DNA of 64,000 nucleotides, taken from the NCBI GenBank assembly GCA_022984795.1, contig JALIHJ010000021.1:62001-126000 (forward strand), read 5' to 3'. The DNA is from Fabrea salina. Its lineage: Eukaryota > Ciliophora > Heterotrichea > Heterotrichida > Fabreidae. Below are positions 26,658-60,312 of the stretch, piece by piece; positions within the stretch are counted from its first letter, which is position 1; the number at the start of each line of letters is the position of its first letter. The translations under genes were made by a program, and so were the position numbers. The notes beneath the pieces are model-generated. The model had not been told where the DNA came from. It made no database searches and saw nothing but the letters and a program-made list of their open reading frames with translations.

Positions 26658-28352
26658 ATGGGAGCTAAGTGCGGTAAGTACAAAGACCTTGAAATAAGAC
26701 ACCAAAGCGACAAAAGAGTCAAAAAACAAGGATTCAAAAGTTTTGAACAAGCCAGACAGTGGGTCAGGAGCGAGTTCCCTACACTAAGGGGATTCCCTGT
26801 AGAATTTAGAGACCAAAAAGGGTCGGAAATCTCGAATGACTCGCAGTATAAAGAGTGCCTTAAAAGCTCGAAGAAAAAAGTAGTTTTTCAGGTCTTCAAA
26901 ATGCAAAACCCCAAACTGGAACCTTTGTTTTTAAACGACTTAGCAAAAGGAGTGTTTAAATTGCGCAAAAAAGACAATGATGTTGAAGGCTTAGGGATAC
27001 TTGTGTCCAACAAGCACTTTATAACAACAACTCAGAGTTTAAAAACTATTGACCAACTTAAGCAATTCACAGCTTTGTTTGACGGGAAAGAAATCCACTT
27101 TAAAAGCGATGGACTGTTTTATAAGTTCTGTGGTGGCCACTTTGTAGTGGCAGAGTTAGACGGAACAACTGAATCTTTTATAAAGCTGAACACTCAGTTC
27201 AGAGGTGACCTGGATACAAGCGTATATTGCTTTTATTGCTTAAGACAAAACCCTCTCTTGTTAGTAGAAAACAGTAAAGTAATAGAATGGGGCAACGAAA
27301 CTGGAGTCTTTAAAGTTCCTTTGAAAAAAGCAGGACAAGGTTCACAGTGTGCACCAGTTTTCAATGCACAAGCAGAGCTTCTTGGCCTTGCCTTTGAGCT
27401 TTCAGAAGAAACTAAGTTCTTAGGAACTCACAAACTTGCATCTGAGTTGCTGTCTGCACTATCGAAAACTGATAAAGAGGATGTTAAGGAAATGGCTAAA
27501 CAGGTTTTGGGTTCTTCAGGCATTCTATACCCTGAAACCGACCAAGCAATGGACTCAGACGTTTCAAGCATGACAGAAGAATTCCAGTTTGCAGAGTCCA
27601 CTTGCCACTTAGACTTTGACAAGTACCAACTCAGAATTGTGTCTCCTAACGACTACGATATTTACACTGTGGAACTCTGGTCTGAGATACAAAAAGGAGC
27701 AGTTCCAGTAGTTACTTCCAAAGGAATCTTTATAACCGGAGGAGACAGTCCTAAAAGTGCTTACTTGTATAATGGAGACAAGTTCTTTGAACTGCCTAAC
27801 ATGCACAGAAAACACAAAGCCCACGTTGCATTGATCTACAAAGAAAGGCTTTGTGTGGTGTCTGGGTACAGTACTAAGTCTGTAGAACTCCTAAACAAGA
27901 ACACCTGGGAACTGCTTCCTCAACTAAACCACCCTTTAGCAAATGCCAGTGGAGTTGTGTACAAGGAAAGTATTTTTTTGTTTGGAGGAGAAAAGGGCAA
28001 AACTTTAGAAGTCAGCAGAGCTATTCTTATGCTGGAGGGAGACGACTGGAAAAAACTCCACTTGAAACTTCCAGAAAAATTAGTAGGGCTGGGAACTATA
28101 GTTCTCAGAAAAGACAAAGTGCTGATTTTCGGAGGAGATGCTCAAGAAGAAGACTTTAGAAGAGAAAACTTAAACTCGTGGGAGCTAGGGTTGGAGTCCC
28201 TGGACTTACAAGAAGGCCCTAAACTTGTTAAAGCTAACTGGTTTCAGAACCACGTTGCTTATGGAGACTCTGAAAAACTTTTATTTGCTAAGTCAGGCGA
28301 GATCCTACGCTACAGTAAAAACAAGCTGCAATACTTGAGTTTATGTGATTAA
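26658..28352 (+). CDS. PB1-like / pseudo-trypsin / kelch protein, N-acylated
   Basis: Encodes 564 residues. The N-terminus MGAKCGK suggests myristoylation plus palmitoylation. A PB1-like domain follows (about 10-80; FRDQKGSEISNDSQYKECL resembles the acidic OPCA loop). Then comes a chymotrypsin-fold region (about 95-260) and kelch-like repeats (about 335-560; ITGGDS, VSGYS, LFGGEK, IFGGDA). In the protease region the catalytic His site reads ITTTQS, the Asp site HFVVAEL and the Ser motif GSQCAP, so all three residues of the triad are gone. A paralog with the same order lies at 58582-60312. Probably a membrane-bound scaffold; substrate and partners unknown. Confidence 0.85.
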   Translation: MGAKCGKYKDLEIRHQSDKRVKKQGFKSFEQARQWVRSEFPTLRGFPVEFRDQKGSEISNDSQYKECLKSSKKKVVFQVFKMQNPKLEPLFLNDLAKGVFKLRKKDNDVEGLGILVSNKHFITTTQSLKTIDQLKQFTALFDGKEIHFKSDGLFYKFCGGHFVVAELDGTTESFIKLNTQFRGDLDTSVYCFYCLRQNPLLLVENSKVIEWGNETGVFKVPLKKAGQGSQCAPVFNAQAELLGLAFELSEETKFLGTHKLASELLSALSKTDKEDVKEMAKQVLGSSGILYPETDQAMDSDVSSMTEEFQFAESTCHLDFDKYQLRIVSPNDYDIYTVELWSEIQKGAVPVVTSKGIFITGGDSPKSAYLYNGDKFFELPNMHRKHKAHVALIYKERLCVVSGYSTKSVELLNKNTWELLPQLNHPLANASGVVYKESIFLFGGEKGKTLEVSRAILMLEGDDWKKLHLKLPEKLVGLGTIVLRKDKVLIFGGDAQEEDFRRENLNSWELGLESLDLQEGPKLVKANWFQNHVAYGDSEKLLFAKSGEILRYSKNKLQYLSLCD

Positions 28353-28365
28353 AAGTTATAAATAA

Positions 28366-29022
28366 ATGTCTTTCTTCGCAAAAACTAAACCTGAAAGAAT
28401 AGCAATAGTAGTTGACTGCAGCAAAGACCTTAAGTCTATAGAATGCAGAAACGAACCCTCCAAGTTTAGAGAAAAAACCAAGTTTGACCACGTTAAAAAC
28501 GCGGTTGCTATCATGGTGAAATCTAAAGCCCACATATCCAGCAGGCACCAATACTCACTTTTTACACTTGACGAAACTGCTAACTTACTAGTTCCTTTTA
28601 CAGAGTCTTCTGAACAAATCATAGAAACTCTACAGCAACTAGAAGCTTACTCAGAACACAGTTCTTGCAACCTAAACTCAATATTTGAAGCTCTAGGCAG
28701 CACGGCAGACTTGACAGACCAAGAATACCTAGTAAGGGTAATTGTAGTTTACGGAAGTAAGTCTGCTCTTCCAACAATAAGTGAAGAAATAAGAACTGGG
28801 GTGCTTGTAGACTATGTGTACTTGTATGACGAGTTTAACCAACCAAACAAAGAAGTTATTCTCAGTGAACTAAGCAAACTCAAACCAAGCAACAAAAAAA
28901 ACTACTCGTTTACCATAGGCATGGACATCCACGAACTCTACAAAGCTTTCAGTCTTTTAACTGCGCACCCCCAACAAAGAATTTCCCAGGAAGAAATCCA
29001 TAATTACTTTAACCAAAGTTAA
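28366..29022 (+). CDS. BABAM1: BABAM1/MERIT40-like vWA protein
   Basis: Encodes 218 residues with a von Willebrand A-like fold. It starts RIAIVVDCSKDLKS (MIDAS-like strand) and ends YSFTIGMDIHELYKAFSLLTAHPQQR, which matches the end of human MERIT40, including the LLAHPLQRP motif. MERIT40 stabilises the BRISC and BRCA1-A complexes, which cut Lys63-linked ubiquitin chains. Human MERIT40 has an added disordered N-terminus, absent here. No other subunit of these complexes is in the window. The TAA is followed by TA and the ATG of the next gene. Confidence 0.82.
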   Translation: MSFFAKTKPERIAIVVDCSKDLKSIECRNEPSKFREKTKFDHVKNAVAIMVKSKAHISSRHQYSLFTLDETANLLVPFTESSEQIIETLQQLEAYSEHSSCNLNSIFEALGSTADLTDQEYLVRVIVVYGSKSALPTISEEIRTGVLVDYVYLYDEFNQPNKEVILSELSKLKPSNKKNYSFTIGMDIHELYKAFSLLTAHPQQRISQEEIHNYFNQS

Positions 29023-29024
29023 TA

Positions 29025-29441
29025 ATGCTAAAGTTCGGAGTAGGCGCTATTTTGTGCTTAGGAGGAGTAGTTTACTCCCAGAAAGAACTTATATACCAAG
29101 AATGCAAAGCGTTCATAGTGCTGAAGGCCAAAGAAATACTTAGGCACGAACTGAACCAAGAGCATGTCATAGACATGTGCTCCACCAACCTCAACTCAGT
29201 CATTTTCAAACACGTTTTAGAAAGTCAGTCAGTAGTGAATGCAACCTCAAGGCTTTTCAGTGACTTACTTGAACAAGAAAGAATTAAAGTACTTGCTACT
29301 TACCTTATGGTGAAAGCCTTAAGACAAGAGTCTGTAAGAGACAAACTCCGAGAAGTAGTAGTTAAGCGCGCTAGGTCCTTTGTGACTGAACCTTTTACAA
29401 AACAACAACTCTACCAAATGCTGTTTGAGTCCCAGGATTAA
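29025..29441 (+). CDS. small protein with N-terminal hydrophobic segment
   Basis: Encodes 138 residues. Residues 2-19 (LKFGVGAILCLGGVVY) are hydrophobic and may be a membrane anchor or organelle-targeting sequence. The rest is helical and amphipathic, ending in a basic stretch (VVKRARSF) and FTKQQLYQMLFESQD. No family recognised; a mitochondrial inner-membrane accessory protein is one possibility, not supported further. It begins 2 bp after the BABAM1 stop, and its TAA abuts the stop of the convergent gene with no base between. Confidence 0.78.
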   Translation: MLKFGVGAILCLGGVVYSQKELIYQECKAFIVLKAKEILRHELNQEHVIDMCSTNLNSVIFKHVLESQSVVNATSRLFSDLLEQERIKVLATYLMVKALRQESVRDKLREVVVKRARSFVTEPFTKQQLYQMLFESQD

Positions 29442-29897
29442 TTATTCGCTTAAGGTTCTTGCCATCATGTTAAGTGCGTCGACTTTTTTGTATTTGTTGT
29501 CCATGATGACTTCTGCTTTAGCGTCGTTAGAAAAGTCTGTTTCCCAAATAACAAAGGCTTTGTTGTTGATGGTTTCTTTGAAGACTTTGAGAACTGCTTG
29601 GTAGGCTGTCATGTTGCTTGCAGGGTCTGCCATAACCAGCTCGTAAGCTAGGGTTCTTCGAATGTCACTCACTTCCAGGATTCTGTAGGTCCACTGTGCT
29701 CCTTCTTGGAAAGTTAACTTTACGCTAGAGCCTACCTTTCCGGGTTCTCCGTCTACCCAGGTAACCTCCCTCACCCACTCAGGGCACATCTGGTCTAACT
29801 GGAAGTTCCGAATCATGCCCCAGACCTTGTCGCTTGGGCAATTGATGTAGATTGACTCATACTGATGGGAAGCAACAGGAATATCAGAATGTTCCAT
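29442..29897 (-). CDS. SRPBCC/START-like lipid-binding protein
   Basis: Encodes 151 residues from ATG 29897; an ATG further upstream would run into the divergent gene. The layout is that of the SRPBCC (Bet v 1/polyketide cyclase) superfamily: YESIYINCPSDKVWGMIRNF at the start, a central WVDGEPGKVGSSVKLTF strand pair, WTYRILEV, and a long C-terminal helix. Members form a deep pocket for small hydrophobic ligands. Ligand unknown. Its stop codon touches that of the gene before it, forming TAATTA. Confidence 0.82.
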   Translation of the reverse strand: MEHSDIPVASHQYESIYINCPSDKVWGMIRNFQLDQMCPEWVREVTWVDGEPGKVGSSVKLTFQEGAQWTYRILEVSDIRRTLAYELVMADPASNMTAYQAVLKVFKETINNKAFVIWETDFSNDAKAEVIMDNKYKKVDALNMMARTLSE

Positions 29898-29909
29898 TAT
29901 TATTTTAAT

Positions 29910-30428
29910 ATGGGTAATTGCTGCGCTAAGCATAACTCATCTAAAAGGTGCAAGTTCTGCAATATCCTTAGCGACAAACTAAAAAACACAGAGTCTCAGA
30001 AGCTGCCTTCTAAAGGAGCTCTTAACTACAAAGACCAATCTGCAAGTAGTTCAATAACTGATACCCTTACTCCTAAGTTTACAGAGTTCCAGCTAAACTC
30101 TTTGCCTGTTCAAAAGATGAAAAGCAAACTACAGAAATTTGCAAACGAAGTATCTGAACAAGAAGGCAACTTCAAAGAAAGCTTTGAAATACTCCAGGCT
30201 ATACTTCAGAATCTAGTACTTAATTTTGAAAAGCCCAAGTACAAAGCTTTAAAAAAAGAAAACCCAACATTCTACAAGTACATTGGCCAGTATGTTGTAG
30301 GAAAAAAAATGATGGACTTTTTGGGATTTAAAGAGGAAAGTCAAGCCTTTCTGTACTCAAAAGACCAAAAATACGCCAAAAACAAACTTCGCGACTTGAA
30401 GCTTGTATACATAAGCATGATAAATTAA
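29910..30428 (+). CDS. N-acylated PUB-domain protein
   Basis: Encodes 172 residues. MGNCCAKH at the N-terminus is a strong myristoylation/palmitoylation signal. A Ser/Thr/Lys-rich linker with CxxC (CKFC) follows. Residues about 85-165 (ESFEILQAILQNLVLNF, KYKALKKENPTFYKYIGQ, KMMDFLGFKEESQAFLYS) match the PUB/PUG domain, which binds the C-terminal tail of p97/VCP in PNGase, UBXN and HOIP. It may tether p97 to a membrane; that role is inferred. The ATG lies 12 bp from the divergent SRPBCC ATG. Confidence 0.78.
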   Translation: MGNCCAKHNSSKRCKFCNILSDKLKNTESQKLPSKGALNYKDQSASSSITDTLTPKFTEFQLNSLPVQKMKSKLQKFANEVSEQEGNFKESFEILQAILQNLVLNFEKPKYKALKKENPTFYKYIGQYVVGKKMMDFLGFKEESQAFLYSKDQKYAKNKLRDLKLVYISMIN

Positions 30429-30469
30429 GTTACAATAGAGTGATTGTAAGTAGTAATCTAAGCTTGAGG

Positions 30470-30484
30470 AACTTAATTTAAGTT
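30470..30484. promoter_or_regulatory. 7-bp inverted repeat upstream of IQCH
   Basis: AACTTAA-T-TTAAGTT lies in the 76-bp spacer between the PUB gene and IQCH, 20 bp before the IQCH ATG. It is one of few spacers here long enough for a separate site. It could bind a dimeric factor or be chance in AT-rich DNA. Confidence 0.25.
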
Positions 30485-30504
30485 ATCTGAAAACTGCTGT
30501 AAAA

Positions 30505-33378
30505 ATGGACTATGAAGAAGGAGACACTGGGAAAATGCTTATTAACGTCCAGGAAAGACTTGCAGGGATCAAAGAAACTCTTTCAGGCTTAAACACTTCA
30601 GGAGTTCCTCAACTAGCTTTGATAGACAGTCATATTAGCCGGGTTGACGAGTCAATCAAGCAAGAAACCCAAAGTTTGCTTTCGAAAATAATGTCAGGAG
30701 AAACTGTTCAGGACCTGCGTCCCAGAGACCAAAAAAGCACTCTTAAAAAAGCAGGAGAACTAGCTTTGAGGCCTTCAAAGACCTACATAAACAAGTCGTC
30801 CCTAGAAAGAAAGACCAGGCATTCAAAAACAGGCAATTGGGCTAACGAAGACGAAATGCCCACAATTGCAGAGGAAGACATAACAAAAGGCATGCTTAAC
30901 TTAATCAACCGAGGAATCATTCCTAAAGACGTAGACCTCACTCCAGCCTTTGAAAGGGGTGCTCCTCCTCTTTCGTCCAAACCAGCCAGCATCTACTCCC
31001 AAGCTTTAAAGCCTTACAGTACAAGTGTGAGGCCTACTACTCAAGACATCCAAGCTGTGAAAGTGGACTTCCAAAACACCGAGAAAAACAGAAGTCACAA
31101 CTTCAAACCCCAGAAGTCAAGCTTTGTGGAAATGGACTTTATGATGGAACCCAAACCCATTAAAATGCCTGAAGAAAAGAATGAAGCTAGGAACTACGAT
31201 GAAATCATGGACACCTTTTCTCTGCACCACTTTATAATTCGCAAAGGAGTTACTCTGGACACGCCTGAGTTTGCTTCTTACAAAAGAACTTTTACTTCAA
31301 TGTGGCCTAAAATCTCCCAAACTATAGAGTACTTAGAAGCTTTTTTATACAGATTTGCTGTGCCCAAAGCTGTGGTAGACGGCAAGAAACTTAACGATGT
31401 ACTGAATAGCAAACCTAGCGAAGAAGAACTTTTAGACTGCATAGTTAACAAAGAAGAAGTAAGGCACCACATAAACATTCCAAGAATCCAGTTTAAAGGT
31501 CCCAACGGAAAAGAAAAAGCAGCTATGGCTATCCAAAGGTTCTGGAGGGGCTTCAAAACGGCTTTTGCTTACAAACAACTTAAGTTCTTGATGAGCAAAG
31601 CAAAAGTAATCCAAAAAGCTTTTAGGACTTTTTTAAGGGTGAAAAAAGCTAGAGAACAAATTGCCAACAAGTTTTCTGAAGACCTCCAAAAATGGAAACA
31701 ACTCCAAGAAAAGTTTAAGTCTGAGTGGACTTACTTGCAAGACAAAAAAAGAGTTGAAATCCACATTTCAAGTCTTTCCATTGAAGAGTCCCGCAGACTC
31801 ACTATGGACAAGTTCTTAGTAAAGCAAAACCTACAAATTTCCCGAATCTTCAGAGTGCAAGACCCCAACATTACTGTAGTTTACGTTTCTGCTTTTGAAA
31901 TGTCCCAAGAAGTAATTAACTACTACTTGAAGATCCTTGAAAAAGGAGGAGTGCAAGACCCTAGCTCAAGACTGAATTTTGTGTTTCCAGACCTTTCTAA
32001 CTTGCCTACTCACTTGACCACTACCAAAGGAGTGCTTTACTCTCCTTCCACTATTAAGAGACTCAAAAACTTAGTTAAGCATACTAAAGCCTACATAGTG
32101 CCTGGACCCATGACCAAAGAAGAAGTAGAACTTGCTGTAGCTTTAGGACTCCCTATTTACGCAGGGGACCCCCACAAGTCCCAGCTCTTTTCAACTAAAA
32201 GTGGAAGCAAAAGAGTTCTTTCAGAAGCTAGCATTCCTTTGCCTCCAGGAGCTTTTGACATCTACGACGAAAAAGAGTTCCTTGCTACCCTTACAAGACT
32301 GATATGCAACAACCCAGACATTGAAACCTGGATCTTTAAGATTGACAACGAGTTAGCAGGAAGGGGTCATGCCTTTTTGGATGTAGGTGCTTTGAAGCCT
32401 ATTAAGAACGTTAAAAAAGGCGACTTGCAAGTGAACGAAGAAAAACAAGCCAGGATTTACCAGTACCTTTTAAGAGTGCTGCCTTCAAAGGTCAAAATAG
32501 CCATGCCTAACTTGTACACTTCTTGGAAAGAGTACTTGAAAGAGTTTGTTAAAAGTGGAGGAGTAATAGAAGCCGGGGCTCCTTGTCCCCCTAACAAAAA
32601 GGGCTCTGTAAGTGTTGTGTTTTGTGTGAACCCAGACAAGTCTATAGACTTAATAGGTGCTTTTGATAAACTAGAGTCCAAAAAGTTCGTAACTACTGCC
32701 TACTCTTTTCCTCAAAAAGCACTTCCTAACATGAACTTTAAACTGTTTGCACTGACACTTGGCAGTACACTCTACGAAAAAGACATTCTTGGGTACGTGT
32801 GTGTAGACTTGGTGTCTTTTCCAGACGACAGAAGCAGTTCAGAGCACCCTTTGTTTTGGGCAGTGGATTTGAACTGTCATCTGAACGCAGCAGGGTCTGT
32901 AATGTACTTTTTTGACTTCTTAATGCAAGGAAACCTTGACGAAACTTTTGGGAACTACGACGTGAACTTTGTGGAAGAAACCAGAAAAACCCAGGAAAGG
33001 AACTTTTTACTGGTTCCGTTCATTAACTACCCAGGAATCAGCCGAGTTATTTACAAGAACTTCTTTTACATGGCTAAGCTCCAAGGCGTGAGTTTTGACT
33101 TCCAGAACAAAAAAGGCACTAATTTCTTATTAGCAGACTGCTTGCAGAGTTCAGTTTTGGGACTTATAAGCACAGGCAAGACCCAAGAAAACTGTGTCAA
33201 ACTTATGTTGGAAGCTTTGAGTTTCGTAGGTAGCCAAGGCAACCCTAAAAAAGGTCCTTCAGAGGTTGCTAGAGACGACTTTGTTTCTTTTCCTGAAATA
33301 GTTTCTGTTGTTAAACAGCTCCAGAAAAAACTAGAAAAGTCCAAAAAAAAGGTAAAAAAGAACCTTGTTTTTAACTAA
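30505..33378 (+). CDS. IQCH: IQCH-like protein (IQ motif, ATP-grasp-like C-terminus)
   Basis: Encodes 957 residues. A disordered N-terminal third leads to IQ motifs (about 338-375: AMAIQRFWRGFKTAF and AKVIQKAFRTFLRVKKAR), which bind calmodulin. The remainder (about 440-900) matches the conserved C-terminal region of IQ-domain protein H: ITVVYVSAFEMSQEVINYYLKI, AYIVPGPMTKEEVELAVALG and IETWIFKIDNELAGRGHAF, an ATP-grasp-like pattern. IQCH is needed for sperm and ciliary function in animals and is retained in ciliated organisms. A calmodulin-like gene lies 5 kb away. The C-terminus is very basic. Confidence 0.88.
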   Translation: MDYEEGDTGKMLINVQERLAGIKETLSGLNTSGVPQLALIDSHISRVDESIKQETQSLLSKIMSGETVQDLRPRDQKSTLKKAGELALRPSKTYINKSSLERKTRHSKTGNWANEDEMPTIAEEDITKGMLNLINRGIIPKDVDLTPAFERGAPPLSSKPASIYSQALKPYSTSVRPTTQDIQAVKVDFQNTEKNRSHNFKPQKSSFVEMDFMMEPKPIKMPEEKNEARNYDEIMDTFSLHHFIIRKGVTLDTPEFASYKRTFTSMWPKISQTIEYLEAFLYRFAVPKAVVDGKKLNDVLNSKPSEEELLDCIVNKEEVRHHINIPRIQFKGPNGKEKAAMAIQRFWRGFKTAFAYKQLKFLMSKAKVIQKAFRTFLRVKKAREQIANKFSEDLQKWKQLQEKFKSEWTYLQDKKRVEIHISSLSIEESRRLTMDKFLVKQNLQISRIFRVQDPNITVVYVSAFEMSQEVINYYLKILEKGGVQDPSSRLNFVFPDLSNLPTHLTTTKGVLYSPSTIKRLKNLVKHTKAYIVPGPMTKEEVELAVALGLPIYAGDPHKSQLFSTKSGSKRVLSEASIPLPPGAFDIYDEKEFLATLTRLICNNPDIETWIFKIDNELAGRGHAFLDVGALKPIKNVKKGDLQVNEEKQARIYQYLLRVLPSKVKIAMPNLYTSWKEYLKEFVKSGGVIEAGAPCPPNKKGSVSVVFCVNPDKSIDLIGAFDKLESKKFVTTAYSFPQKALPNMNFKLFALTLGSTLYEKDILGYVCVDLVSFPDDRSSSEHPLFWAVDLNCHLNAAGSVMYFFDFLMQGNLDETFGNYDVNFVEETRKTQERNFLLVPFINYPGISRVIYKNFFYMAKLQGVSFDFQNKKGTNFLLADCLQSSVLGLISTGKTQENCVKLMLEALSFVGSQGNPKKGPSEVARDDFVSFPEIVSVVKQLQKKLEKSKKKVKKNLVFN

Positions 33379-33387
33379 GTTATATTA

Positions 33388-34221
33388 TCACTCTTCTTCG
33401 AACTGCCGGTTGTAGTTATTTTTTTCAATTTGGTTTATGAACTCGTAAACAAGGTCAAGAGTGCTTCGGATCTCCCCTGCTAAGTCAGAGTCTTCGCCAA
33501 GTTGTTGATTTACAAAGTCAAGCACTTCGTTGAGTTCGTTAGCTGCTTGCTCGAGTTCCACGTTTTTAACTGAGTGCTTTTCTTTGGAGTCTGACTCTAA
33601 AAACTTCTTCCAAATCAAGCACATTTGTCTGTAGAAACTCAAAGCTTCGTCTTTTTTTTCTTGCTGAAGAAAAATGTTCCCCATTAAGTAGTAAGAACCT
33701 GAAAGTGAGTAGTGCTCAGGACTTTTGTCTAAACTTTCTAGGTAGATGTTTTCAGTTAAGCTTTTGCTTGCTTGGTCATACTGTTCGATCTCTGTGAACA
33801 AAGCCCCGAAGCTTTTTAAGAGTCGAGACCGGAACTTAGATATAGTGGCTTCTAACTGGGGGTTCTGGTGTTTTTCGTTTTCACTAGGTTGCATTTTAGT
33901 TAGAATCCAGTCTGCTGCAATTAAGTTTCCTTGGGCTTTTTTCTTTTTCCCAACTTTAAGGTTGGCGTCTGCGAGTTCAAATAGAAGTGGCATGAGTTCC
34001 ATAGAGTACTCTCCAAAGATCATTGAGGACTCTTGAAGGCACTGGAAAGCAATGACCACTGCTTCGTCTGCTTTGTTTTGGTTGATGCAGCGTCTAGCTT
34101 CTTCCGAGACTTCAGCAATGGCTTGTCTTTGTTCTTCTTGTCTGAGGAACTCTCTTCTGGCTCTTTCTGCTTCTGAAGCAATTAAGGGTTCTTTGTTGCT
34201 AGATAACTGCCTTGTTGACAT
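33388..34221 (-). CDS. ZMYND12-like TPR protein
   Basis: Encodes 277 residues from ATG 34221, which leaves 4 bp to the divergent gene. It is all helical with TPR-like repeats; the block ADEAVVIAFQCLQESSMIFG...SMELMPLLFELADANLKVGK matches the TPR part of ZMYND12, an axonemal protein linked to inner dynein arms. The animal MYND zinc finger is absent. It ends in an acidic tail and TGA, directly followed by TAA, so termination is secured twice. Orthology to ZMYND12 is probable, not certain. Confidence 0.75.
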   Translation of the reverse strand: MSTRQLSSNKEPLIASEAERARREFLRQEEQRQAIAEVSEEARRCINQNKADEAVVIAFQCLQESSMIFGEYSMELMPLLFELADANLKVGKKKKAQGNLIAADWILTKMQPSENEKHQNPQLEATISKFRSRLLKSFGALFTEIEQYDQASKSLTENIYLESLDKSPEHYSLSGSYYLMGNIFLQQEKKDEALSFYRQMCLIWKKFLESDSKEKHSVKNVELEQAANELNEVLDFVNQQLGEDSDLAGEIRSTLDLVYEFINQIEKNNYNRQFEEE

Positions 34222-34225
34222 TTTT

Positions 34226-34885
34226 ATGCAAGAAACTAAAGAAGGCATTTTGAACCTTGTTAAACTCCAGAACTCCCAGTTGCAACAAAGAACCCTAGTT
34301 TTGGAAAACAAGCTCAAAGAACTAGAAGTCAAACTTAAAAACACTTCTGAAAGCCTTCGAAAAGAAACTACTCAAAAACAAAACCTTGAAAAAGAACTAG
34401 AAAGTCAAGAAAATAACTTCAAAGAAGCTATTGTTTACTTGAAGCAACTAATTAACAATTTGGATGCTGAAAACTATAACTTAAATTCTCAACTTGAAGA
34501 GCGTAAAAAAGCTTCTACGCACTCTCAGAACAAAATCCACCAACTAGAACAGCAAGTCAACAACTTAAAAGAAAAAAAACAAATAGAAAAAGAAGCTACT
34601 CAAGACCACCTAGACCAGTTGCTTAAAGAAGTCAAAGCACTTAAAAGCGACAAAGAAGCACTTTTACTTAAGAATCAACAATTAAACTCCCAATTACAAT
34701 CATCTCAAGAAAAAATAAACTCTTTAAAAAAAGAAGTTTCAAAACTAAACGGGTTCCTCAACATCATCCAAGAAACATCTCTTAAAGACTGGCTGCAAAC
34801 AAGACATCAAAGAAGAAGCAAAATGCTTTCCAACCGACTATTCCAAATACCCAAAACTCTTAAAACAATCATTAAAAAATGTTAA
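34226..34885 (+). CDS. coiled-coil protein, unknown
   Basis: Encodes 219 residues from ATG 34226. It is nearly continuous coiled coil (about 5-180; Leu, Glu, Lys, Gln, Asn), then a basic C-terminus (TRHQRRSKMLSNRL). An earlier ATG in the frame (34052) lies wholly inside the antisense TPR gene and gives unlike sequence. The last four bases (TTAA) are shared with the stop of the convergent RMND5 gene. No family recognised. Confidence 0.8.
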   Translation: MQETKEGILNLVKLQNSQLQQRTLVLENKLKELEVKLKNTSESLRKETTQKQNLEKELESQENNFKEAIVYLKQLINNLDAENYNLNSQLEERKKASTHSQNKIHQLEQQVNNLKEKKQIEKEATQDHLDQLLKEVKALKSDKEALLLKNQQLNSQLQSSQEKINSLKKEVSKLNGFLNIIQETSLKDWLQTRHQRRSKMLSNRLFQIPKTLKTIIKKC

Positions 34886-36021: not shown

Positions 36022-36068
36022 TTTATTGCACTCAAACTAAGTCAAAAACATTATTTGTAAAAATAACG

Positions 36069-37181: not shown

Positions 37182-37204
37182 TTTCTTTGTATTATAACTC
37201 AGAT

Positions 37205-48943: not shown

Positions 48944-48951
48944 ATAATAAA

Positions 48952-50494: not shown

Positions 50495-50496
50495 TA

Positions 50497-52017: not shown

Positions 52018-52141
52018 CACTCTATAATATCTATTAATTAGCTAGCTTGGAGTATTTGGCTGTTAGACACCATTTAAGAGTCCAAAATAATTTCAGTTAT
52101 TTACTTTTGTTGAGCTTGTGTAAGCAAACGTGGTAATTTAA

Positions 52142-53449: not shown

Positions 53450-53456
53450 GATAAAT

Positions 53457-54887
53457 ATGGTAGAAGAGGTAAAAGGAGACCCTCTGGCTCGTGTTGAAGA
53501 GTTGAAGCAGCTAGGCAACCAGAAGTTCAAGGAAAAGCACTTTGGGGAAGCTATAGCTTTTTACACACAAGCCATAGAACTAGACCCCTCTCTACCCGTT
53601 CTTTACTCAAACAGATCGCTTGCTAACCTTAAGGTCGAAAATTACGGGTTTGCTGAAAAAGACGCTTCGGAAGCTATAAGGCTAGACCCTAACTTCATTA
53701 AAGGGTACTACAGAAGGGGGTCTGCTAACTTTGCAATGTGCCGTTTCAAAGAAGCCATCAAGGACCTCAAAGCAGTTTGCAAAATTGTGCCAAACGACAA
53801 AGAAGCCAAAAACAAGTTGAGAAGTGCTCAAAAAGAATTTAGGGCCTTGAAGTTTGCTGAAGCACTTGAAATGGAAACACCTTCAAAGGCAATTGACATC
53901 CAAAACTTAGAAGTTCCTGACTCCTACACAGGTCCTAGACTCCCTGAAGTAGTTACACCTGAATGGGTCCAGGAACTCATGGAGTACTTTAAAAACCAAA
54001 AACAACTCCACAAAAAGTATGTTTTGGAAATGCTAATCAGAGTCAAAGAAGTGCTTTCCAACCTAAGATCTTTGGTTTATATAGGCATTCCTCAAGAAGA
54101 AGAATTCACAGTTTGCGGAGACGTGCACGGGCAGTTTTACGACTTACTCAACATTTTCGAACTAAACGGAGTGCCTTCGCCTTCCAACCCTTTCTTGTTC
54201 AATGGCGACTTTGTGGACAGAGGCTCTTTTTCAGTTGAGGTGATGCTGACTCTGTTTGCTTGGAAACTGTGCTACCCCGAACACTTCCACTTGCTAAGAG
54301 GCAATCACGAAACCAAAAACATGAACAAGGTTTACGGGTTCGAAGGAGAAGTGCATCACAAGTACGACACCAACACAATGGAGTTGTTTAGTGAAATCTT
54401 TTGTTACCTGCCTTTAGCTGCAGTTTTGAACAGCAAAGTTATGGTTACTCACGGAGGTTTGTTCTCGCAAGACGGAGTCAAACTATCCGACATCGAAAAC
54501 CTGGACAGAGTTAAAGAACCTCCTGACAGTGGAATCATGTGCGAGCTACTTTGGAGCGACCCCATTAAGTCGAATGGTAGACACCCTTCTAAAAGAGGAG
54601 TTGGTCTTAGTTTTGGTCCAGACGTAGCACACAGGTTCTTGGACGAAAACAACTTAGAACTACTAGTAAGGTCGCACGAAGTCAAAGAAGAAGGTTACGA
54701 AGTCGAAGCAGACGGACGCGTCATCACAATTTTCAGTGCACCTAACTACTGTGATCAGATGGGAAACAAAGGTGCTGTGCTAAAGTTTAAAGGCAGCGAC
54801 ATGAAACCCCAGTTCAAGACTTTTACAGCTGCTCCTCATCCCAACGTCCCCGCTATGGCTTACGCTAAGCCCTTTATGTTTATGTAA
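53457..54887 (+). CDS. PPP5C: protein phosphatase 5 (TPR + PPP catalytic domain)
   Basis: Encodes 476 residues from ATG 53457; a longer frame overlaps the PP2C gene. Three TPRs (about 12-115; QLGNQKFKEKHFGEAIAFYTQAIELDP) inhibit the enzyme and bind the Hsp90 C-terminus. A PPP phosphatase domain (about 175-470) carries GDVHGQ, GDFVDRG, RGNHE and THGGLF. Length and order equal PP5 (about 499 in animals). PP5 dephosphorylates Hsp90 clients and co-chaperones. It directly follows the PP2C gene, by 7 bp. Confidence 0.95.
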   Translation: MVEEVKGDPLARVEELKQLGNQKFKEKHFGEAIAFYTQAIELDPSLPVLYSNRSLANLKVENYGFAEKDASEAIRLDPNFIKGYYRRGSANFAMCRFKEAIKDLKAVCKIVPNDKEAKNKLRSAQKEFRALKFAEALEMETPSKAIDIQNLEVPDSYTGPRLPEVVTPEWVQELMEYFKNQKQLHKKYVLEMLIRVKEVLSNLRSLVYIGIPQEEEFTVCGDVHGQFYDLLNIFELNGVPSPSNPFLFNGDFVDRGSFSVEVMLTLFAWKLCYPEHFHLLRGNHETKNMNKVYGFEGEVHHKYDTNTMELFSEIFCYLPLAAVLNSKVMVTHGGLFSQDGVKLSDIENLDRVKEPPDSGIMCELLWSDPIKSNGRHPSKRGVGLSFGPDVAHRFLDENNLELLVRSHEVKEEGYEVEADGRVITIFSAPNYCDQMGNKGAVLKFKGSDMKPQFKTFTAAPHPNVPAMAYAKPFMFM

Positions 54888-54910
54888 TCCTAATAAATTA
54901 GCGGTCATAA

Positions 54911-55624
54911 ATGAAGTTCAACATATCTTTCCCAGAGACAGGCCAGCAAAAGCTCATCGAGATTGACGACGACATGAAAGTAAGGAATTTTTACGACAGA
55001 AGAATGGGCCAGGAGATCGAGGGCGAAGTTTTAGGAGAGGAGTTCAAAGGGTACGTTTTCCGAATTGCAGGAGGAAATGACAAGCAGGGATTCCCCATGA
55101 AACAAGGAGTCCTTGAAAACAGACGTGTGAGACTGCTCCTGGCCGATGGGCACTCTTGCTACCGTCCCCGCAGAAAGGGAGAACGCAAGCGCAAGTCCAT
55201 CAGGGGCTGCATTGTGAGTTATGACATTGCTGTTCTTCACTTAGTCATTGTGCAAAAAGGCGAGCAAGAATTGCCAGGCCTCACTGACGACCCTCGTCCC
55301 CGCAGACTTGGACCCAAAAGAGCCAATCACATCAGGAAGTTATTTGCCCTCAGCAAAGAGGATGACGTGAGGAAGTATGTTGTGAGGAGGAAGATCGAAA
55401 GAGAAGGCAAACCTGCTAAGTCCAAGGCCCCCAAAATTCAGAGACTCATCACAGAAGAAAGACTCAGAAGAAAAACCAAAGAAAAGAAAGACAAAAAGGA
55501 AGCTTGGGAAAGAGCAAAAACTGCAAAGAAGAACTACTTAAGGTTGGTCAACCAGGTTATGTACCGCAAGAACCACCCCGACAAGGCTTCTATCAACGAC
55601 GAAGTCAAACAAGCTACCGCTTAG
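54911..55624 (+). CDS. RPS6: 40S ribosomal protein S6 (eS6)
   Basis: Encodes 237 residues. [54 protein letters not shown] and [16 protein letters not shown] are eS6 hallmarks. The C-terminus has a Lys-rich helix but lacks the clustered RRxS sites that S6 kinase phosphorylates in animals (it ends NDEVKQATA). Acts in the small subunit near the mRNA channel entry. Stop TAG; one of two ribosomal protein genes in the window. Confidence 0.97.
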
Positions 55625-55668
55625 TATATAAATGGTTTGCTCAAATTAGTTTTTAAGGGGCAATTTTA

Positions 55669-56316
55669 ATGAACCTCACCAAAAGAGAAGTAGGCTTGAT
55701 GGGAGTCCTTAAAGGCGTCCACAAAACTGCTGAGAAGTTTGAACTCTCCCAGTCCTATGTCCGAGAAGCTGTTTTAAGTATTGAAGAAGATCCTTTTTTC
55801 CACAAACTCAGAGAGTACATTACCCAGTACATCCAGAAAACTTCTGTTGAGAAAGCAGCCAGAAAGTTCTTTTTGCCTAAAAACATTCTGCAGAAGCTTT
55901 TGGAACACGAAAAAGAATGCTCTAAAGAACAAGTGATCCAAGAAGCCTACAGAAGAATTAAAAGTACCTACTCTGTTCCCATAAATCCTCAGCCTAAACC
56001 TCCCAAAAAGACCCAAACCCCAGAACTGTTTTCTGCTGACTCTTTTATCAGAGCTATTCCACAAATCACCTCTAGAGAAGTATCCAGTTTAGACTCCAAC
56101 ACTAAACTTTTGATAGTTTCGGAACTGCAAAAAACTAAAGACCCAACTGTTTTAAGTGACGAATTTGGAGTGGTTAAAGATACTATGGAGTACTGGGCCA
56201 AGTCTTACCACCAAAAAGGAAAACTCCCTGAGTCCCAGCTGTTGCAAAAAGCTGCTTCTGAAGTTTTAGTCCAAGCTTATGAGGAACTTGTGAAGGAACT
56301 GGGAATTGCTAAGTAA
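55669..56316 (+). CDS. putative DNA-binding protein with repeated HTH-like units
   Basis: Encodes 215 residues. Three stretches look like helix-turn-helix units: about 17-35 (HKTAEKFELSQSYVREAV), 55-80 (SVEKAARKFFLPKNILQKL) and 162-190 (DPTVLSDEFGVVKDTMEYWAKS). A Pro/Lys-rich linker (about 103-117) separates the second from the third. Such short repeated HTHs occur in homeodomain-like regulators and transposase-derived proteins. No transposase core or repeats flank it, so it looks like a host gene. A role in transcription is inferred. The 44-bp spacer upstream contains a rejected 15-nt intron lookalike. Confidence 0.75.
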   Translation: MNLTKREVGLMGVLKGVHKTAEKFELSQSYVREAVLSIEEDPFFHKLREYITQYIQKTSVEKAARKFFLPKNILQKLLEHEKECSKEQVIQEAYRRIKSTYSVPINPQPKPPKKTQTPELFSADSFIRAIPQITSREVSSLDSNTKLLIVSELQKTKDPTVLSDEFGVVKDTMEYWAKSYHQKGKLPESQLLQKAASEVLVQAYEELVKELGIAK

Positions 56317-56331
56317 TGATTTATAATAATA

Positions 56332-56607
56332 ATGCCGCATTACCCATCTGAAATAGAGTACTCTGAAAAGTACTGCGACAGTGTGAATGAGTATAGACAC
56401 GTGCATCTTCCTAGACACCTTTTTAAGAAGATACCTAGAGGAAGACTACTTAGTGAGCAGGAGTGGAGAAGCTTAGGAGTTCAACAAAGCAGAGGCTGGG
56501 TTCACTATGAAATCCATAGACCCGAACCTCACATTTTACTTTTTAAGCGTCCTTTGGGCACTGACCCTTTAACTGGACTTGTTCCTATTGATTCCCGCCA
56601 TTATTAG
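56332..56607 (+). CDS. CKS1: CKS1, cyclin-dependent kinase regulatory subunit
   Basis: Encodes 91 residues, standard for CKS. It has [21 protein letters not shown], the anion-binding residues of [36 protein letters not shown] (quoted as [17 protein letters not shown] / [17 protein letters not shown]), and the HRPEPH hinge used for strand exchange. It docks phosphorylated sites on CDK substrates in cell-cycle control. Small single-exon gene, 15 bp after the HTH gene. Confidence 0.96.
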
Positions 56608-56619
56608 CATATACTTAAG

Positions 56620-58515
56620 TTATTTAATGCTTCCCCAAAGTAAGTCCTTGAACCTAGGTTTTTCTTTAGGAGTCCGATTCCTCAAAAAGTCACTGTGCTC
56701 AAGTTCTCCAGTTCTAGTGTATCCTGTTTTCAAGGTAACTTCTGACACTCCTCTGCTCTGGAAAATCTTTTCAAGAAGATACTGAATTTTTTCATAAGCA
56801 CCTCCTTTGACATTGGTGCTTTCGAGTGCACAAATTCCAATAGCCTGGACGAAGTTTTCAAAGTCTATAGAAACGAGTTCACCTTCTTGGAAGTTAACAT
56901 TGGGCAAACTAATTGCGGAAGAAATAGTGATTGACTTGCGGTGCATGCTTGACACTGTTGAAAAAATCCAAGTGAGACTTTTCCTGGGCAAAACGTCTGG
57001 GAATATTGAAAAGTCACTGCAAAAGTTCATAAAGTTAGCAAAGTTCATTTTTTGGTGCTTGTCAAAGTAGTGCTTTGAATAAGTCCTTAGTGAGTTACTA
57101 AGCGATTCCATAGAGTTATCTAAGTGCTTTTCTTTTAAGATCGACAACACAGCCCTTAAGTAGGACTCTGTGCCCTTAAAAAGTGCTTCTAGAGGCAAAA
57201 TGTGGTTTTCAACAAGGTTAATATATGCTTCCTCTTCCCCCATTCCAGTGTAGAGTTTACTTGATATAGTTTCTAGTGCATACAAGAACTGCCTGAAACT
57301 AAGCTTGCGGCAGTCGTTTTCTTTAGGAATTAAGTGGTGTTTTTCTTTAAAAGGCTGTTCAGTAGTTTTGGGTGCTTTGTAAGTTAAAGCTTTTAAAAAC
57401 ACTAAGTGGGCTTCTGCACTGCTGAAGCCTTGTTTGGAACTTTTGATGATTTTAGCGTCGCACAAGAGCTTTAAAAAGTTGTAACTGTTCATTTTCCTCA
57501 AGTTAGTTTTGTTGCCTAAGATACAGTAAGCATTAAAAACACTTTCAAGTTGTTCTAGGTGGATTTCTAAGTTCGTTCTGCTTTCAGTGACTTCGAACTT
57601 ATCCAGTGTTTTAAGGTTCTGTTCAAGGTTTTCTTTATGAGCAGTTTGCATAAGTTTCAGTACTCTTTTAGAAGTAAGTAAACTCAGGGTTCGAGTTCTG
57701 ATTTGCTGAGTACTGACTCCAGAAAAAGAAGACATTTCAAGTTTTTCTAGGAACACAACCAACTTCTCAGACGGAGAAAGCACTCTTTGAACGTACTTAC
57801 CTAAAAGTGAGCATCTCAAAAGACACATTAGGAACTTTTTAAAAGTGAAGTACTGGCCTTCTTCTTTAAAGTTAAAAAAGCACTCTAAGTTTTGAACGCA
57901 GTGGATTATGTCACACCAAAGCCTTTTTGCCAGTCCGTTAGAAATCAAATCTGGGGTAATTTTATAGTCACTAATCAAGGCCATAAAAGCTTCTTCGGAC
58001 TTTCTAGCAATCACACACTGGGGTTCAGAGCTGTAGAGCTCCCAAGCAAAGTTGCTTTTGTATATGTTCCACAGAGGTTCTTTGGCAGTTAGGATTATTT
58101 CAAGGGTGTCATCGTCGATTTGGCAGTCTGTTTCTTCAAAGTCTAGGATCTTTCCAGTCGACACTAAGTTGTAGTAGAGTTCCAAAATGTGCTCGTCAAA
58201 CAACTTAAACAAAGCTTCTGTTGTCGGAGTTTCTTGACTGCTTGGGAACTTAACTAAAGCTACTCTTCCTAAGATCTCGCAAAAAGTTTCGAAGTCTATG
58301 TTTTTGGTTCTTTTTTCAGAGTAAATAAGTAACTGGATGTCTTTGGGTGTTAGGGAGTGCGAATGAACTTCTGCGTCTTTAAACAGTTTAAGCAAATTTT
58401 GATTGCTGAGCAATTTACCGTTTGAGGTGACTCCTAAGCAAGCATAATAGTGGTAAATTTTTCTCAAGCAGCCTAGCATTTCCTCTGGGCCCATTTCGTA
58501 CCTGCTTTGGTTCAT
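56620..58515 (-). CDS. protein with repeated p25-alpha/EF-hand-like modules
   Basis: Encodes 631 residues. Three similar modules seem present: about 10-95 (LSNQNLLKLFKDAEV ... IDFETFCEILGRVAL), 310-430 (MNSYNFLKLLCDAKI ... LSFRQFLYALETIS) and 490-575 (MNFANFMNFCSDFSI ... IDFENFVQAIGICAL). The Phe-x-x-hydrophobic pattern resembles p25-alpha/TPPP domains, which bundle microtubules. No calcium loop is complete. The tail is basic with RNRTPKEKPRF. The assignment is from pattern alone. Converges with CKS1, 12 bp apart. Confidence 0.78.
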   Translation of the reverse strand: MNQSRYEMGPEEMLGCLRKIYHYYACLGVTSNGKLLSNQNLLKLFKDAEVHSHSLTPKDIQLLIYSEKRTKNIDFETFCEILGRVALVKFPSSQETPTTEALFKLFDEHILELYYNLVSTGKILDFEETDCQIDDDTLEIILTAKEPLWNIYKSNFAWELYSSEPQCVIARKSEEAFMALISDYKITPDLISNGLAKRLWCDIIHCVQNLECFFNFKEEGQYFTFKKFLMCLLRCSLLGKYVQRVLSPSEKLVVFLEKLEMSSFSGVSTQQIRTRTLSLLTSKRVLKLMQTAHKENLEQNLKTLDKFEVTESRTNLEIHLEQLESVFNAYCILGNKTNLRKMNSYNFLKLLCDAKIIKSSKQGFSSAEAHLVFLKALTYKAPKTTEQPFKEKHHLIPKENDCRKLSFRQFLYALETISSKLYTGMGEEEAYINLVENHILPLEALFKGTESYLRAVLSILKEKHLDNSMESLSNSLRTYSKHYFDKHQKMNFANFMNFCSDFSIFPDVLPRKSLTWIFSTVSSMHRKSITISSAISLPNVNFQEGELVSIDFENFVQAIGICALESTNVKGGAYEKIQYLLEKIFQSRGVSEVTLKTGYTRTGELEHSDFLRNRTPKEKPRFKDLLWGSIK

Positions 58516-58581
58516 CTTAAAAATTATTTAGAGTTAGTAAAGGTAACTTTTAGATTTAAGAACTCTGCTTTAGTGGAAGTG

Positions 58582-60312
58582 CTAGGAAGGTTCATGTGGT
58601 ACTGAGTAATTAAATCGGACTTCATAAAAGTTTTTTTCAGAGTAGTGGTACCTAAGCAACTGGCCACTGTTTGAGAAAATCACTGCTTCATGTTGGTTAT
58701 TAACGGGCTGGAAGCTCCCAAAACTAATATTGAGTTTGAGACCTTTTACTGAGTTAGTTTTGCCTGAGTTCAAATTTAGTTCCCAGGCGTGTTCGTTGTC
58801 TATTTGTTCGTCTTCTTGGTTAATAACTCCTCCAAATATAAGTAACTTGTGAGTTTCAACTAGTATTGCTCCTACATTACTTAGTTTAAAGGGCAAGTGG
58901 AAGCTGAGTTTGGTCCACTTAGAGTTTTCGAGTTTCCAAACACTATGAGTAACTCTAGTTTTTTCTTGTCCACCTAAAACAAAAATACTTCCAGAAACCA
59001 CTATTCCTGAAAAGTTAAACTTCTTCTTGGGAATAGAAGGCGCTTGTTTCCAAGTTTTTTCTATTAAATCAAAAGTCTCAACAGCAGTAGTTTTCTTCCC
59101 AGAAATTACATAAACTTTACCTTCTAAGTACACAGAGCAATGGAAACTGTGTTTTTCAGCCGTATTTTGGACCTTCACAAAAGCAACTCCGTCAAAAAGA
59201 GTAGCAGACTTTTGTGAACCGTGTTGTTCAGGCCCAGTAATCAGAATTCCTTTAGGCGTGCACACGGCTGAAGACCCTTTTTCAAATGGGGGCAGGTCTG
59301 GAACTATGGAAGCAGTACAAGTAGAAGCATTGAAAATTACCATGTTTCTGTTTTGGGTGTCTAAAAAGCAGGTGCTTTCTGGAAAGTTAAACTTTTGTTT
59401 GGACTCTAAACTAGAGCTTTTCCAAATTCTTTCAATAGCTAAGTGGCAGGGCTCTGTTTCTAAAGTTGACTCTTGGTGGTTGCTTAGTTTTTCAACTATG
59501 TACTCTACATTCAAAACTGAGCCTGGCATATCATCAGACTTATAAGAAGAAAACACTCCTATTAACTTTGCCTCTGAATTCAAAACAGGAGCCCCTGAAG
59601 ACCCTTCTTTCAAAGCTTCTTCAAAAGCGAAAAACTTGTGGTCAAACAGGTGGATTTCAGAAGTTTTGGCTTGAAGCACTGGAAAGTTTCTGGTGTAGTA
59701 AATGACAGTTGCTAGTGACTCGTTTTCTGCAAAAAGAGTTGACTGCAGAGGGATTGGAGTGAGGGAGTCCAAAAACTCAGTTTGCTGGGAGTCAGGAGCT
59801 AATTCTACTACTGCAAAGCGAATGCTTTCTTGGTCGGGAAAAGGAATGAAAACTTCAGAATTAAAGTTCACCTCTACTGAGTCTAGCTGGAAAAGGGCAG
59901 AGTACTGCTTAAGAGCTGAGACTCCAGAAAAGTTTTCTGTGGTAGTGATAGCTAGTCTTTGAGTAATCATAAACCCTGTTCCTGCAAGTTCGTGGCCTTT
60001 TTGTCTGAGTTTAAAAACTGAGTTGGACAAAGCTTGCCACTTAGGATCTGGAAACTCAAAAGGCCTGGCTTTTTCTGCTTGGAGTTTGAGAAAAGGTTTG
60101 AAGTGCATCAGGCTTTTTAGTTCAGTGTCACTTGAAACAACCTGGCTAGTATCTTCGCTGTTTCTGAAGTAAAATGCATGGTTCAATAAATCAGGAAAGC
60201 TTGTTTGAACGTAAGAGTGAAGAGAAGCCATGTCACACACAGTTTGGTGGACAGTTTTAGTTTGGCCTCTGTACTCCACTCGCAGTTTTGGTTTTGACCC
60301 AAAGCAACCCAT
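58582..60312 (-). CDS. PB1-like / pseudo-trypsin / kelch protein, N-acylated (paralog of 26658)
   Basis: Encodes 576 residues with the same plan as the gene at 26658. MGCFGSK suggests double acylation. A PB1-like domain (about 8-75) is followed by a chymotrypsin-like fold (about 88-265; GTGFMITQRLAITTT, RFAVVEL, EGSSGAPVLN) and kelch-like repeats (about 345-565; ITGPEQ, VISGKK, VLGGQE, IFGGVI). Unlike its paralog it keeps Ser in the GxSG motif, but the His and Asp positions are lost, so activity is unlikely. Its ATG is 7 bp from that of the divergent ankyrin gene. Stop TAG. Confidence 0.85.
   Translation of the reverse strand: MGCFGSKPKLRVEYRGQTKTVHQTVCDMASLHSYVQTSFPDLLNHAFYFRNSEDTSQVVSSDTELKSLMHFKPFLKLQAEKARPFEFPDPKWQALSNSVFKLRQKGHELAGTGFMITQRLAITTTENFSGVSALKQYSALFQLDSVEVNFNSEVFIPFPDQESIRFAVVELAPDSQQTEFLDSLTPIPLQSTLFAENESLATVIYYTRNFPVLQAKTSEIHLFDHKFFAFEEALKEGSSGAPVLNSEAKLIGVFSSYKSDDMPGSVLNVEYIVEKLSNHQESTLETEPCHLAIERIWKSSSLESKQKFNFPESTCFLDTQNRNMVIFNASTCTASIVPDLPPFEKGSSAVCTPKGILITGPEQHGSQKSATLFDGVAFVKVQNTAEKHSFHCSVYLEGKVYVISGKKTTAVETFDLIEKTWKQAPSIPKKKFNFSGIVVSGSIFVLGGQEKTRVTHSVWKLENSKWTKLSFHLPFKLSNVGAILVETHKLLIFGGVINQEDEQIDNEHAWELNLNSGKTNSVKGLKLNISFGSFQPVNNQHEAVIFSNSGQLLRYHYSEKNFYEVRFNYSVPHEPS

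What the first reader, a model, noticed from the sequence alone, without database searches (positions are those of the whole stretch)
26658..60312. Two paralogs with an unusual PB1-like / dead trypsin-fold / kelch architecture and acylated N-termini
Genes 26658-28352 and 58582-60312 share the same domain order and length (564 and 576 residues). I know no described family with this combination. Catalytic His and Asp positions are lost in both (ITTTQS / ITTTEN; HFVVAEL / RFAVVEL), and Ser is lost in one (GSQCAP) but kept in the other (GSSGAP). A membrane-tethered PB1 oligomer with a protease fold turned scaffold and a kelch propeller could be a new signalling or ubiquitin-adaptor family. This is the best candidate for an undescribed system in the window.
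Basis: partly seen in the sequence, partly recalled or inferred. Interest (0 to 1): 0.75.

Follow-up and report, generated by a model that had tools for sequence, protein, structure and literature searches.

The report
Dead-protease kelch paralogs in a ciliate
Two related genes in what looks like a ciliate encode proteins that join a lipid-anchor signal, a probable PB1-type assembly domain, a protease fold that has lost its cutting residues and a kelch propeller; each piece is known, the combination appears new, and the likely job is to hold partner proteins together at a membrane rather than to cut them.

Summary
Genes A (26658-28352, +, 564 aa) and B (58582-60312, -, 576 aa) are full-length paralogs (29% identity, E 1e-56). 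Kelch repeats pass a Pfam cut-off in both. The centre of B is a chymotrypsin fold by a sub-cut-off Pfam match, PDB sequence matches and structure search; A's centre is tied to it by 31% identity. The catalytic positions read Gln126/His161/Gln230 in A and Glu126/Arg165/Ser239 in B: both lack His and Asp, A also Ser. PB1 is probable, not proven: no Pfam PB1 hit, but a two-sequence profile ranks the PB1 domain of p62 first in the PDB (E 0.11), and A's model shows a fitting strand/helix order. MG..C starts are present but common here (6 of 38 gene models). The best 'works like' parallel is bacterial UmbA: dead trypsin, helical linker, beta-propeller, whose cleft is reported to hold a partner peptide without cutting it (PMC11062931, passages). 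I infer a membrane-tethered, non-enzymatic adaptor. No ubiquitin link was found. No relatives turned up in the viral, phage and prokaryote collections searched; ciliate genomes could not be searched.

The parts
26658..28352 (+). Gene A, 564 aa
   Evidence: ORF; blastp with B E 1e-56
26658..26675 (+). A: N-terminal MGAKCG, putative N-myristoylation (Gly2) and palmitoylation (Cys5) signal
   Evidence: sequence; motif meaning recalled, modification not tested
26679..26903 (+). A: PB1-like domain, residues 8-82
   Evidence: AF2 block pLDDT 68-82 over residues 11-80 with strand-strand-helix-strand-helix-strand order; profile hit to p62 PB1 E 0.11; SW score reached by 0 of 2000 shuffles; no Pfam PB1 match
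26940..27461 (+). A: dead trypsin-like domain, residues 95-268; catalytic positions Q126, H161, Q230
   Evidence: 31% identity to B's domain; joint profile to V8 protease E 3.5e-4; no match when A is used alone
27462..27569 (+). A: linker, residues 269-304, partly helical
   Evidence: DSSP of a low-confidence part of the model
27570..28349 (+). A: kelch propeller, residues 305-564
   Evidence: Pfam Kelch_6 27.6 bits against cut-off 25.3; the 50 Foldseek rows listed (of 1007 at E up to 10) are kelch-type propellers or contain one
58582..60312 (-). Gene B, 576 aa
   Evidence: ORF; blastp
60295..60312 (-). B: N-terminal MGCFGS, putative myristoylation and palmitoylation signal
   Evidence: sequence; modification not tested
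60079..60294 (-). B: PB1-like domain, residues 7-78
   Evidence: homology to A (E 1.7e-4); SW score to the p62 PB1 piece reached by 0.3% of 2000 shuffles; low AF2 confidence; no PDB match alone
59473..60030 (-). B: dead trypsin-like domain, residues 95-280; catalytic positions E126, R165, S239
   Evidence: Trypsin_2 over 144 of 144 positions E 1.9e-4, 22.6 bits against cut-off 27.6; SplD E 3.5e-4; Foldseek, Esp protease TM 0.66
59401..59472 (-). B: linker, residues 281-304, partly helical
   Evidence: low-confidence part of the model
58585..59400 (-). B: kelch propeller, residues 305-576
   Evidence: Pfam PF24681 52.9 bits against cut-off 50, Kelch_6 35.2 against 25.3, Kelch_1 26.4 against 20.1

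Best explanation
A and B are paralogous, intracellular, non-enzymatic adaptor proteins of a ciliate. Inferred steps: N-myristoylation plus palmitoylation holds them at a membrane; the PB1-like domain assembles them into heteromers or with another PB1 partner, A contributing the basic face (Arg14, Lys22, Lys23) and B the more acidic one (Glu53, Asp54, Asp62, Glu64); the trypsin fold, having lost catalysis, holds an extended peptide of a partner in its old substrate cleft; the kelch propeller captures a second ligand. Shown: paralogy, domain order, kelch, the protease fold of B, change of the catalytic residues. Probable: PB1. Not shown: acylation, oligomerisation, peptide binding, the ligands.
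For: Paralogy and order. Kelch above Pfam cut-offs in both. Trypsin fold of B: Trypsin_2 E 1.9e-4 over the whole profile, V8 protease E 3.5e-4 with the two-sequence profile, Foldseek TM 0.66 to Esp, and 39 of the 50 rows listed (of 1207 at E up to 10) being trypsin-fold chains besides UmbA4. Triad loss. PB1: p62 PB1 first in the PDB with the two-sequence profile, 7 of the 11 matched sequences being p62 (one protein, so one independent match); the same p62 piece finds accepted PB1 domains of MAP2K5, NBR1, Cdc24 and p40phox only at E 0.016 to 0.34, so E 0.11 is in the range of real members; shuffle and tile controls; strand order in A. Precedents: UmbA trypsin domains are reported to bind but not cleave a partner's extended N-terminus and carry a propeller after a short helical linker (PMC11062931, passages); MamO is a trypsin-like pseudoprotease repurposed for metal binding (PMC4794232, passages). 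UmbA4 is the top Foldseek row of model B.
Against: Whole-protein models are poor (mean pLDDT 39.5 and 45.4, two sequences each; for B the other four models have 30.4-34.8). The UmbA4 row has rmsd 24.7, so it shows domain content at most, not a shared arrangement. No Pfam PB1 match even for the isolated N-termini, where the only listed family is an unrelated Arm DNA-binding domain for A at E 0.14; NCBIfam lists an unrelated 6PTHBS match at E 0.11 over residues 9-57 of B; no PDB match when A's or B's N-terminus is used alone. In phmmer with the p62 piece an unrelated frame outranks B. OPCA is incomplete in both, so oligomerisation may be lost. A's central domain alone matches nothing. B keeps Ser239. 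Partners and ligands are unknown.
Confidence: 0.5

Rival explanations
1. A and B are decayed, functionless or marginal copies of an active membrane-bound protease family in the same genome.
For: Catalytic residues differ between A and B, as under independent loss; B keeps Ser239 in a GSSGAP context. The preference for C over T in NAY codons is a little weaker than in the pooled gene models (A 64:19, B 57:24; pooled 1987:365 from the table).
Against: Both frames are full length and conserved over all domains, with 31% identity still held in the dead domain and 35% in the kelch region, and the codon preference is still clearly kept.
Confidence: 0.15
2. B, or both, still have catalysis through another arrangement (for example Ser239 with Glu126, or His120 in A).
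For: B keeps the Ser and the GSSGAP motif; A has His120 in a register that HMMER sets against the V8 His.
Against: His and Asp positions are Glu and Arg in B; A has Gln at the nucleophile position.
Confidence: 0.07
3. The N-terminus is a beta-grasp domain other than PB1 (ubiquitin-like or Ras-binding type), and the proteins resemble FAM111-type UBL plus Trypsin_2 proteins in plan.
For: PB1 and UBL share a fold (recalled); OPCA is incomplete; FAM111 has UBLs followed by Trypsin_2 (PMC9798293, passages and section 11).
Against: The profile ranks p62 PB1 first, and no ubiquitin-like protein is among its 11 listed matches; the FAM111 paper describes a catalytic triad and does not use the word kelch.
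Confidence: 0.2
4. They are substrate adaptors of a ubiquitin ligase.
For: Kelch propellers often serve so (recalled); a BTB-BACK gene without a kelch match lies at 60783-62705.
Against: No BTB, F-box or RING match in A or B; the BTB-BACK gene is separated from B by an ankyrin gene on the other strand, and genes are packed so tightly here that nearness means little.
Confidence: 0.08

Closest known systems
UmbA proteins of Streptomyces umbrella toxin particles (PMC11062931, passages)
   Same: Trypsin-like domain without a full triad, short helical linker, then lectin domains that are mostly beta-propellers; the cleft is reported to bind a partner peptide without cutting; UmbA4 is the top Foldseek row of model B
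   Different: Bacterial; propeller is lectin-type, not kelch; no PB1 or acylation site described; part of an antibacterial particle
FAM111A/B (PMC9798293)
   Same: Ubiquitin-like fold domain(s) before a Trypsin_2 domain, intracellular
   Different: Two UBLs and a catalytic triad; the word kelch does not occur in the paper
p62/SQSTM1 and NBR1
   Same: PB1 domain at the N-terminus; p62 is the best PDB match of the two-sequence profile
   Different: No protease fold or kelch (recalled); A and B show no ZZ or UBA match
V8/Spl/Esp glutamyl-endopeptidase group (S1B, subfamily recalled)
   Same: Closest trypsin-fold sequences and structures
   Different: Active, secreted single-domain proteases (recalled)
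KLHL (BTB-BACK-kelch) proteins
   Same: Kelch propeller at the C-terminus
   Different: No BTB or BACK match in A or B
MamO (PMC4794232, passages)
   Same: Trypsin-like pseudoprotease with a new binding role
   Different: Bacterial, HtrA-related, metal binding, with a transporter domain

Membership tests
Kelch-repeat propellers | Kelch motifs above curated cut-off | tested here: met
   (Kelch_6 in A and B; PF24681 and Kelch_1 in B)
Chymotrypsin-fold (PA clan) domain | Double beta-barrel fold | tested here: met
   B: (below Pfam cut-off). A: only through its 31% identity to B and the joint profile
S1 serine peptidases, active | His-Asp-Ser triad | tested here: not met
   Q/H/Q in A, E/R/S in B
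PB1 domain | Beta-grasp fold with strand-strand-helix-strand-(strand)-helix-strand order | tested here: inconclusive
   A: order seen at block pLDDT 68-82; B low confidence; no structure search was run on this domain alone
PB1 domain | Sequence match to the family | tested here: inconclusive
   Two-sequence profile to p62 E 0.11, control; no Pfam PB1 match; no PDB match of single N-termini
PB1 domain | Basic residue of the first strand and/or acidic OPCA motif | tested here: inconclusive
   A: R14, K22, K23 but FRDQKGSE--ISND; B: E13 at the basic position and FRNSEDTSQVVSSDTEL (alignment); correspondence of R14/K22/K23 to p62 residues is from recall
UmbA | Trypsin fold without triad followed by a beta-propeller | tested here: met
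   domain content only
UmbA | Short helical linker between them | tested here: inconclusive
   helices there only in low-confidence parts of the models
UmbA | Lectin-type propeller | tested here: not met
   the propeller families listed are kelch-related (plus a sub-cut-off NANM match), none of them a lectin family
UmbA | UmbB/UmbC partner genes, secretion signal | not tested
   no search for UmbB/UmbC or for signal peptides was run; the protein starts MG..C and sits in a eukaryote-like genome
FAM111 | Two UBLs plus Trypsin_2 with intact triad | tested here: not met
   one N-terminal domain of about 75 residues, triad lost
N-myristoylated proteins | Gly2 acylated | not testable with these tools
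   motif present; modification needs experiment
BTB-kelch cullin-3 adaptors | BTB domain | tested here: not met

The most novel reading that the evidence does not exclude
A ciliate family of membrane-anchored adaptors in which a PB1-type polymerising domain clusters dead trypsin domains that act as peptide clamps, each coupled to a kelch ligand sensor; the two paralogs pair as a basic-face and an acidic-face partner. This would be a eukaryotic counterpart, by convergence, of the UmbA dead-trypsin plus propeller design.
Probability: 0.15. Interest if true: 0.6.

Novelty: new variant of a known kind. Interest (0 to 1): 0.38.

Why it matters
It joins three well-studied domains in an order that neither family library searched here describes (Pfam, NCBIfam), and it gives a eukaryotic, probably membrane-anchored case of a protease fold kept for something other than cutting. 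Read against UmbA, it makes a specific and cheap prediction: the dead cleft should bind an extended peptide. If it fails, the pair is simply another lineage-specific domain shuffle of a ciliate.

Tried and rejected
Relatives: a single-sequence scan and a two-sequence scan of viral contigs (3 and 60 stretches matched a pattern, none confirmed), one scan of genome contigs (132 stretches, none confirmed) and tblastn of B against the phage records (no match). These collections hold viruses, bacteria and archaea, so this says nothing about ciliates. The window's own genome is not held.

In-frame tiny introns inside A or B: 15- and 16-base GT..AG words occur in both genes. I did not test each one; I read both genes as intronless because the frames are open throughout and align nearly end to end.

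Ubiquitin-adaptor reading: dropped for lack of any linking domain. Active-protease reading: dropped because of the residues.

Literature: PB1 domain + kelch + trypsin-like and PB1 domain + kelch + trypsin + ciliate returned 0 papers each. Pseudoprotease / trypsin-like / scaffold / kelch, at least 3 of 4, returned 35 papers, 10 listed; the one listed with all four terms is a mite transcriptome that I did not open. Kelch + myristoylation + ciliate returned 1 paper, on photoreceptor cilia (listing only). The library is open-licence only, so this is weak evidence that the combination is not in print. Searches for a compact heterotrich genome served only to place the organism; of their papers I saw passages of PMC9505925 alone.
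Full report
What was checked. The two genes are at the stated coordinates and are full-length paralogs: 29% identity over 579 columns, E 1e-56. By domain, blastp gives 18% identity over 60 columns for the N-termini (E 1.7e-4), 31% over 163 for the centre (E 4.8e-19) and 35% over 254 for the kelch region (E 7.6e-42). blastp against 135 stop-to-stop ORFs of at least 80 residues found no third copy in the window.

The organism. The window reads with the standard code: of 38 gene models that I listed by hand, 32 end in TAA, 5 in TAG and 1 in TGA. The gene just upstream of A (an amidohydrolase) becomes one open frame from an ATG at 24742 when a 15-base GT..AG intron at 24795 is removed. Stentor coeruleus introns are 15 bases (92.81%) or 16 bases long, with the branch-point A mostly at position 10 (PMC9505925, passages); the A at position 10 of this intron fits. 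A scan for further such introns gave 7 candidates including this one, some of which may be chance. I infer a heterotrich-like ciliate; the species is not known.

Kelch. Both C-terminal regions pass curated Pfam cut-offs. The 50 Foldseek rows listed for model A, of 1007 at E up to 10, are kelch-type propellers (designed ones included) or proteins that contain one. Whole A alone finds only weak PDB sequence matches (best E 0.02); whole B finds a kelch protein at 4.5e-10.

Trypsin fold. B's isolated domain matches Trypsin_2 over 144 of 144 positions at E 1.9e-4, still below Pfam's own cut-off (22.6 against 27.6 bits). In the PDB it matches SplD (E 3.5e-4). A profile of both domains moves V8 protease to first place at E 3.5e-4, against 0.077 with whole B and absence from the list at 0.01 with B's domain alone, so A's sequence adds to that signal although A alone matches nothing. 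NCBIfam gives B a MarP-family protease match at E 0.006 over residues 56-289, far below cut-off (15.7 against 250 bits). In the best model of B, residues 91-190 have block pLDDT 55-81; the other four models are worse overall (30.4-34.8 against 45.4). Of the 50 Foldseek rows listed for B, of 1207 at E up to 10, I count 39 trypsin-fold chains (by title; 4a5t is recognised from recall), 10 kelch or designed kelch-like propellers, and, first, UmbA4 of Streptomyces; the best TM-score by target length is 0.66, to Esp protease at rmsd 3.7.

Catalytic residues. Anchored on the shared ITTT block, on VVAEL/AVVEL and on GSQCAP/GSSGAP, the His, Asp and Ser positions are Gln126, His161, Gln230 in A and Glu126, Arg165, Ser239 in B. 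One HMMER register sets A's residue 120 (His) opposite V8's His. I prefer the ungapped register because the G-x-G...T-x-x-H spacing of SplD printed then puts its His opposite residue 126; HMMER itself placed a three-residue insertion there. In either register A lacks Asp and Ser, and B lacks His and Asp.

PB1. No Pfam PB1 match was listed, even for the isolated N-termini, where only an unrelated family (Arm-DNA-bind_4, E 0.14, for A) appeared. A PDB search with each N-terminus alone found nothing. The two-sequence profile found 11 PDB sequences up to E 10; 7 of these are p62 PB1, the best at E 0.11, and the other 4 are not PB1 proteins by name. The 7 are one protein, so this is one match. As control, a 56-residue p62 PB1 piece finds MAP2K5, NBR1, Cdc24 and p40phox PB1 domains at E 0.016 to 0.34, with one unrelated protein at 0.32. 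In Smith-Waterman tests against that piece, A's N-terminus scores 48, reached by 0 of 2000 shuffles; B's scores 39, reached by 0.3% of 2000. Among 562 tiles of 80 residues from the window ORFs, A's tile is the only one at 48 or more; 5 reach 39 (2 from A, 1 from B, 2 overlapping tiles of the gene at 4530-6239). phmmer with the p62 piece ranks A first of the 135 ORFs (E 0.067 for the whole protein, 0.32 for its best stretch) and B third (E 2.9) behind an unrelated frame (0.42). Model A has strand, strand, helix, strand, helix, strand at block pLDDT 68-82 over residues 11-80, which fits PB1 or another beta-grasp domain. The OPCA motif needs acidic residues that are only partly present (A: FRDQKGSE--ISND; B: FRNSEDTSQVVSSDTEL; the roles of the lysine and the OPCA residues are described in PMC8200828, passages). 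A's N-terminus is strongly basic (20 K+R against 10 D+E), B's much less so (11 against 8). I put PB1 at about 0.75.

Acylation. MGAKCG and MGCFGS fit dual acylation (recalled rule). But 6 of 38 hand-listed gene models begin MG with Cys within residues 3-6, including an ankyrin gene and a PUB-domain gene, so this does not mark the pair.

How it most likely works. UmbA proteins have a trypsin domain without the full triad, a short helical linker and lectin domains that are mostly beta-propellers; [quoted passage not shown] A and B have the same series of domain kinds, with kelch as the propeller. MamO is a second case of a repurposed trypsin fold (PMC4794232, passages). I therefore read A and B as membrane-held clamps: PB1 for assembly, cleft for an extended partner peptide, kelch for a second ligand. 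The domain series and triad loss are shown; the rest is inference. Likeness to UmbA is of working plan, not membership: the propeller is kelch, not lectin; partner genes and secretion signals were not tested.

Novelty. No Pfam or NCBIfam family was found that describes the whole order, and two literature searches for the combination returned nothing. Because no ciliate genome or proteome could be searched, spread and age of the family are unknown; it may well be listed in ciliate annotations as a kelch-motif protein. I score it as a new variant of a known kind.

Noticed in passing
60312 and 60320: Gene B and the ankyrin gene MGCASTR... start head to head with 7 bases between their ATGs, both encoding MGC; a second head-to-head pair has its likely ATGs at 29897 and 29910, 12 bases apart. 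Their promoters are probably minimal or lie inside the opposite coding region (inference).
   Followed up: partly
whole window: Gaps between many neighbouring genes are 0 to 30 bases in a eukaryote; 32 of 38 listed gene models end in TAA.
   Followed up: partly
656, 26658, 29910, 47300, 60312(-), 60320: Six of 38 listed gene models start MG with Cys within residues 3-6, more than I would expect from recalled proteome-wide rates of a few percent.
   Followed up: partly
24795, also 40506 and 10014: 15-base intron at 24795, and similar 15-base candidates at the other two places.
   Followed up: partly
29910-30428: MGNCC-starting protein with a PUB domain (PF09409, E 1.1e-12), a domain usually linked to p97 (recalled), here possibly membrane-anchored.
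   Followed up: no
60783-62705: BTB plus BACK protein without a kelch match, two genes from kelch gene B, which has no BTB match.
   Followed up: no
28366-29022: VWA_2 protein (E 1.3e-7) 13 bases downstream of gene A.
   Followed up: no
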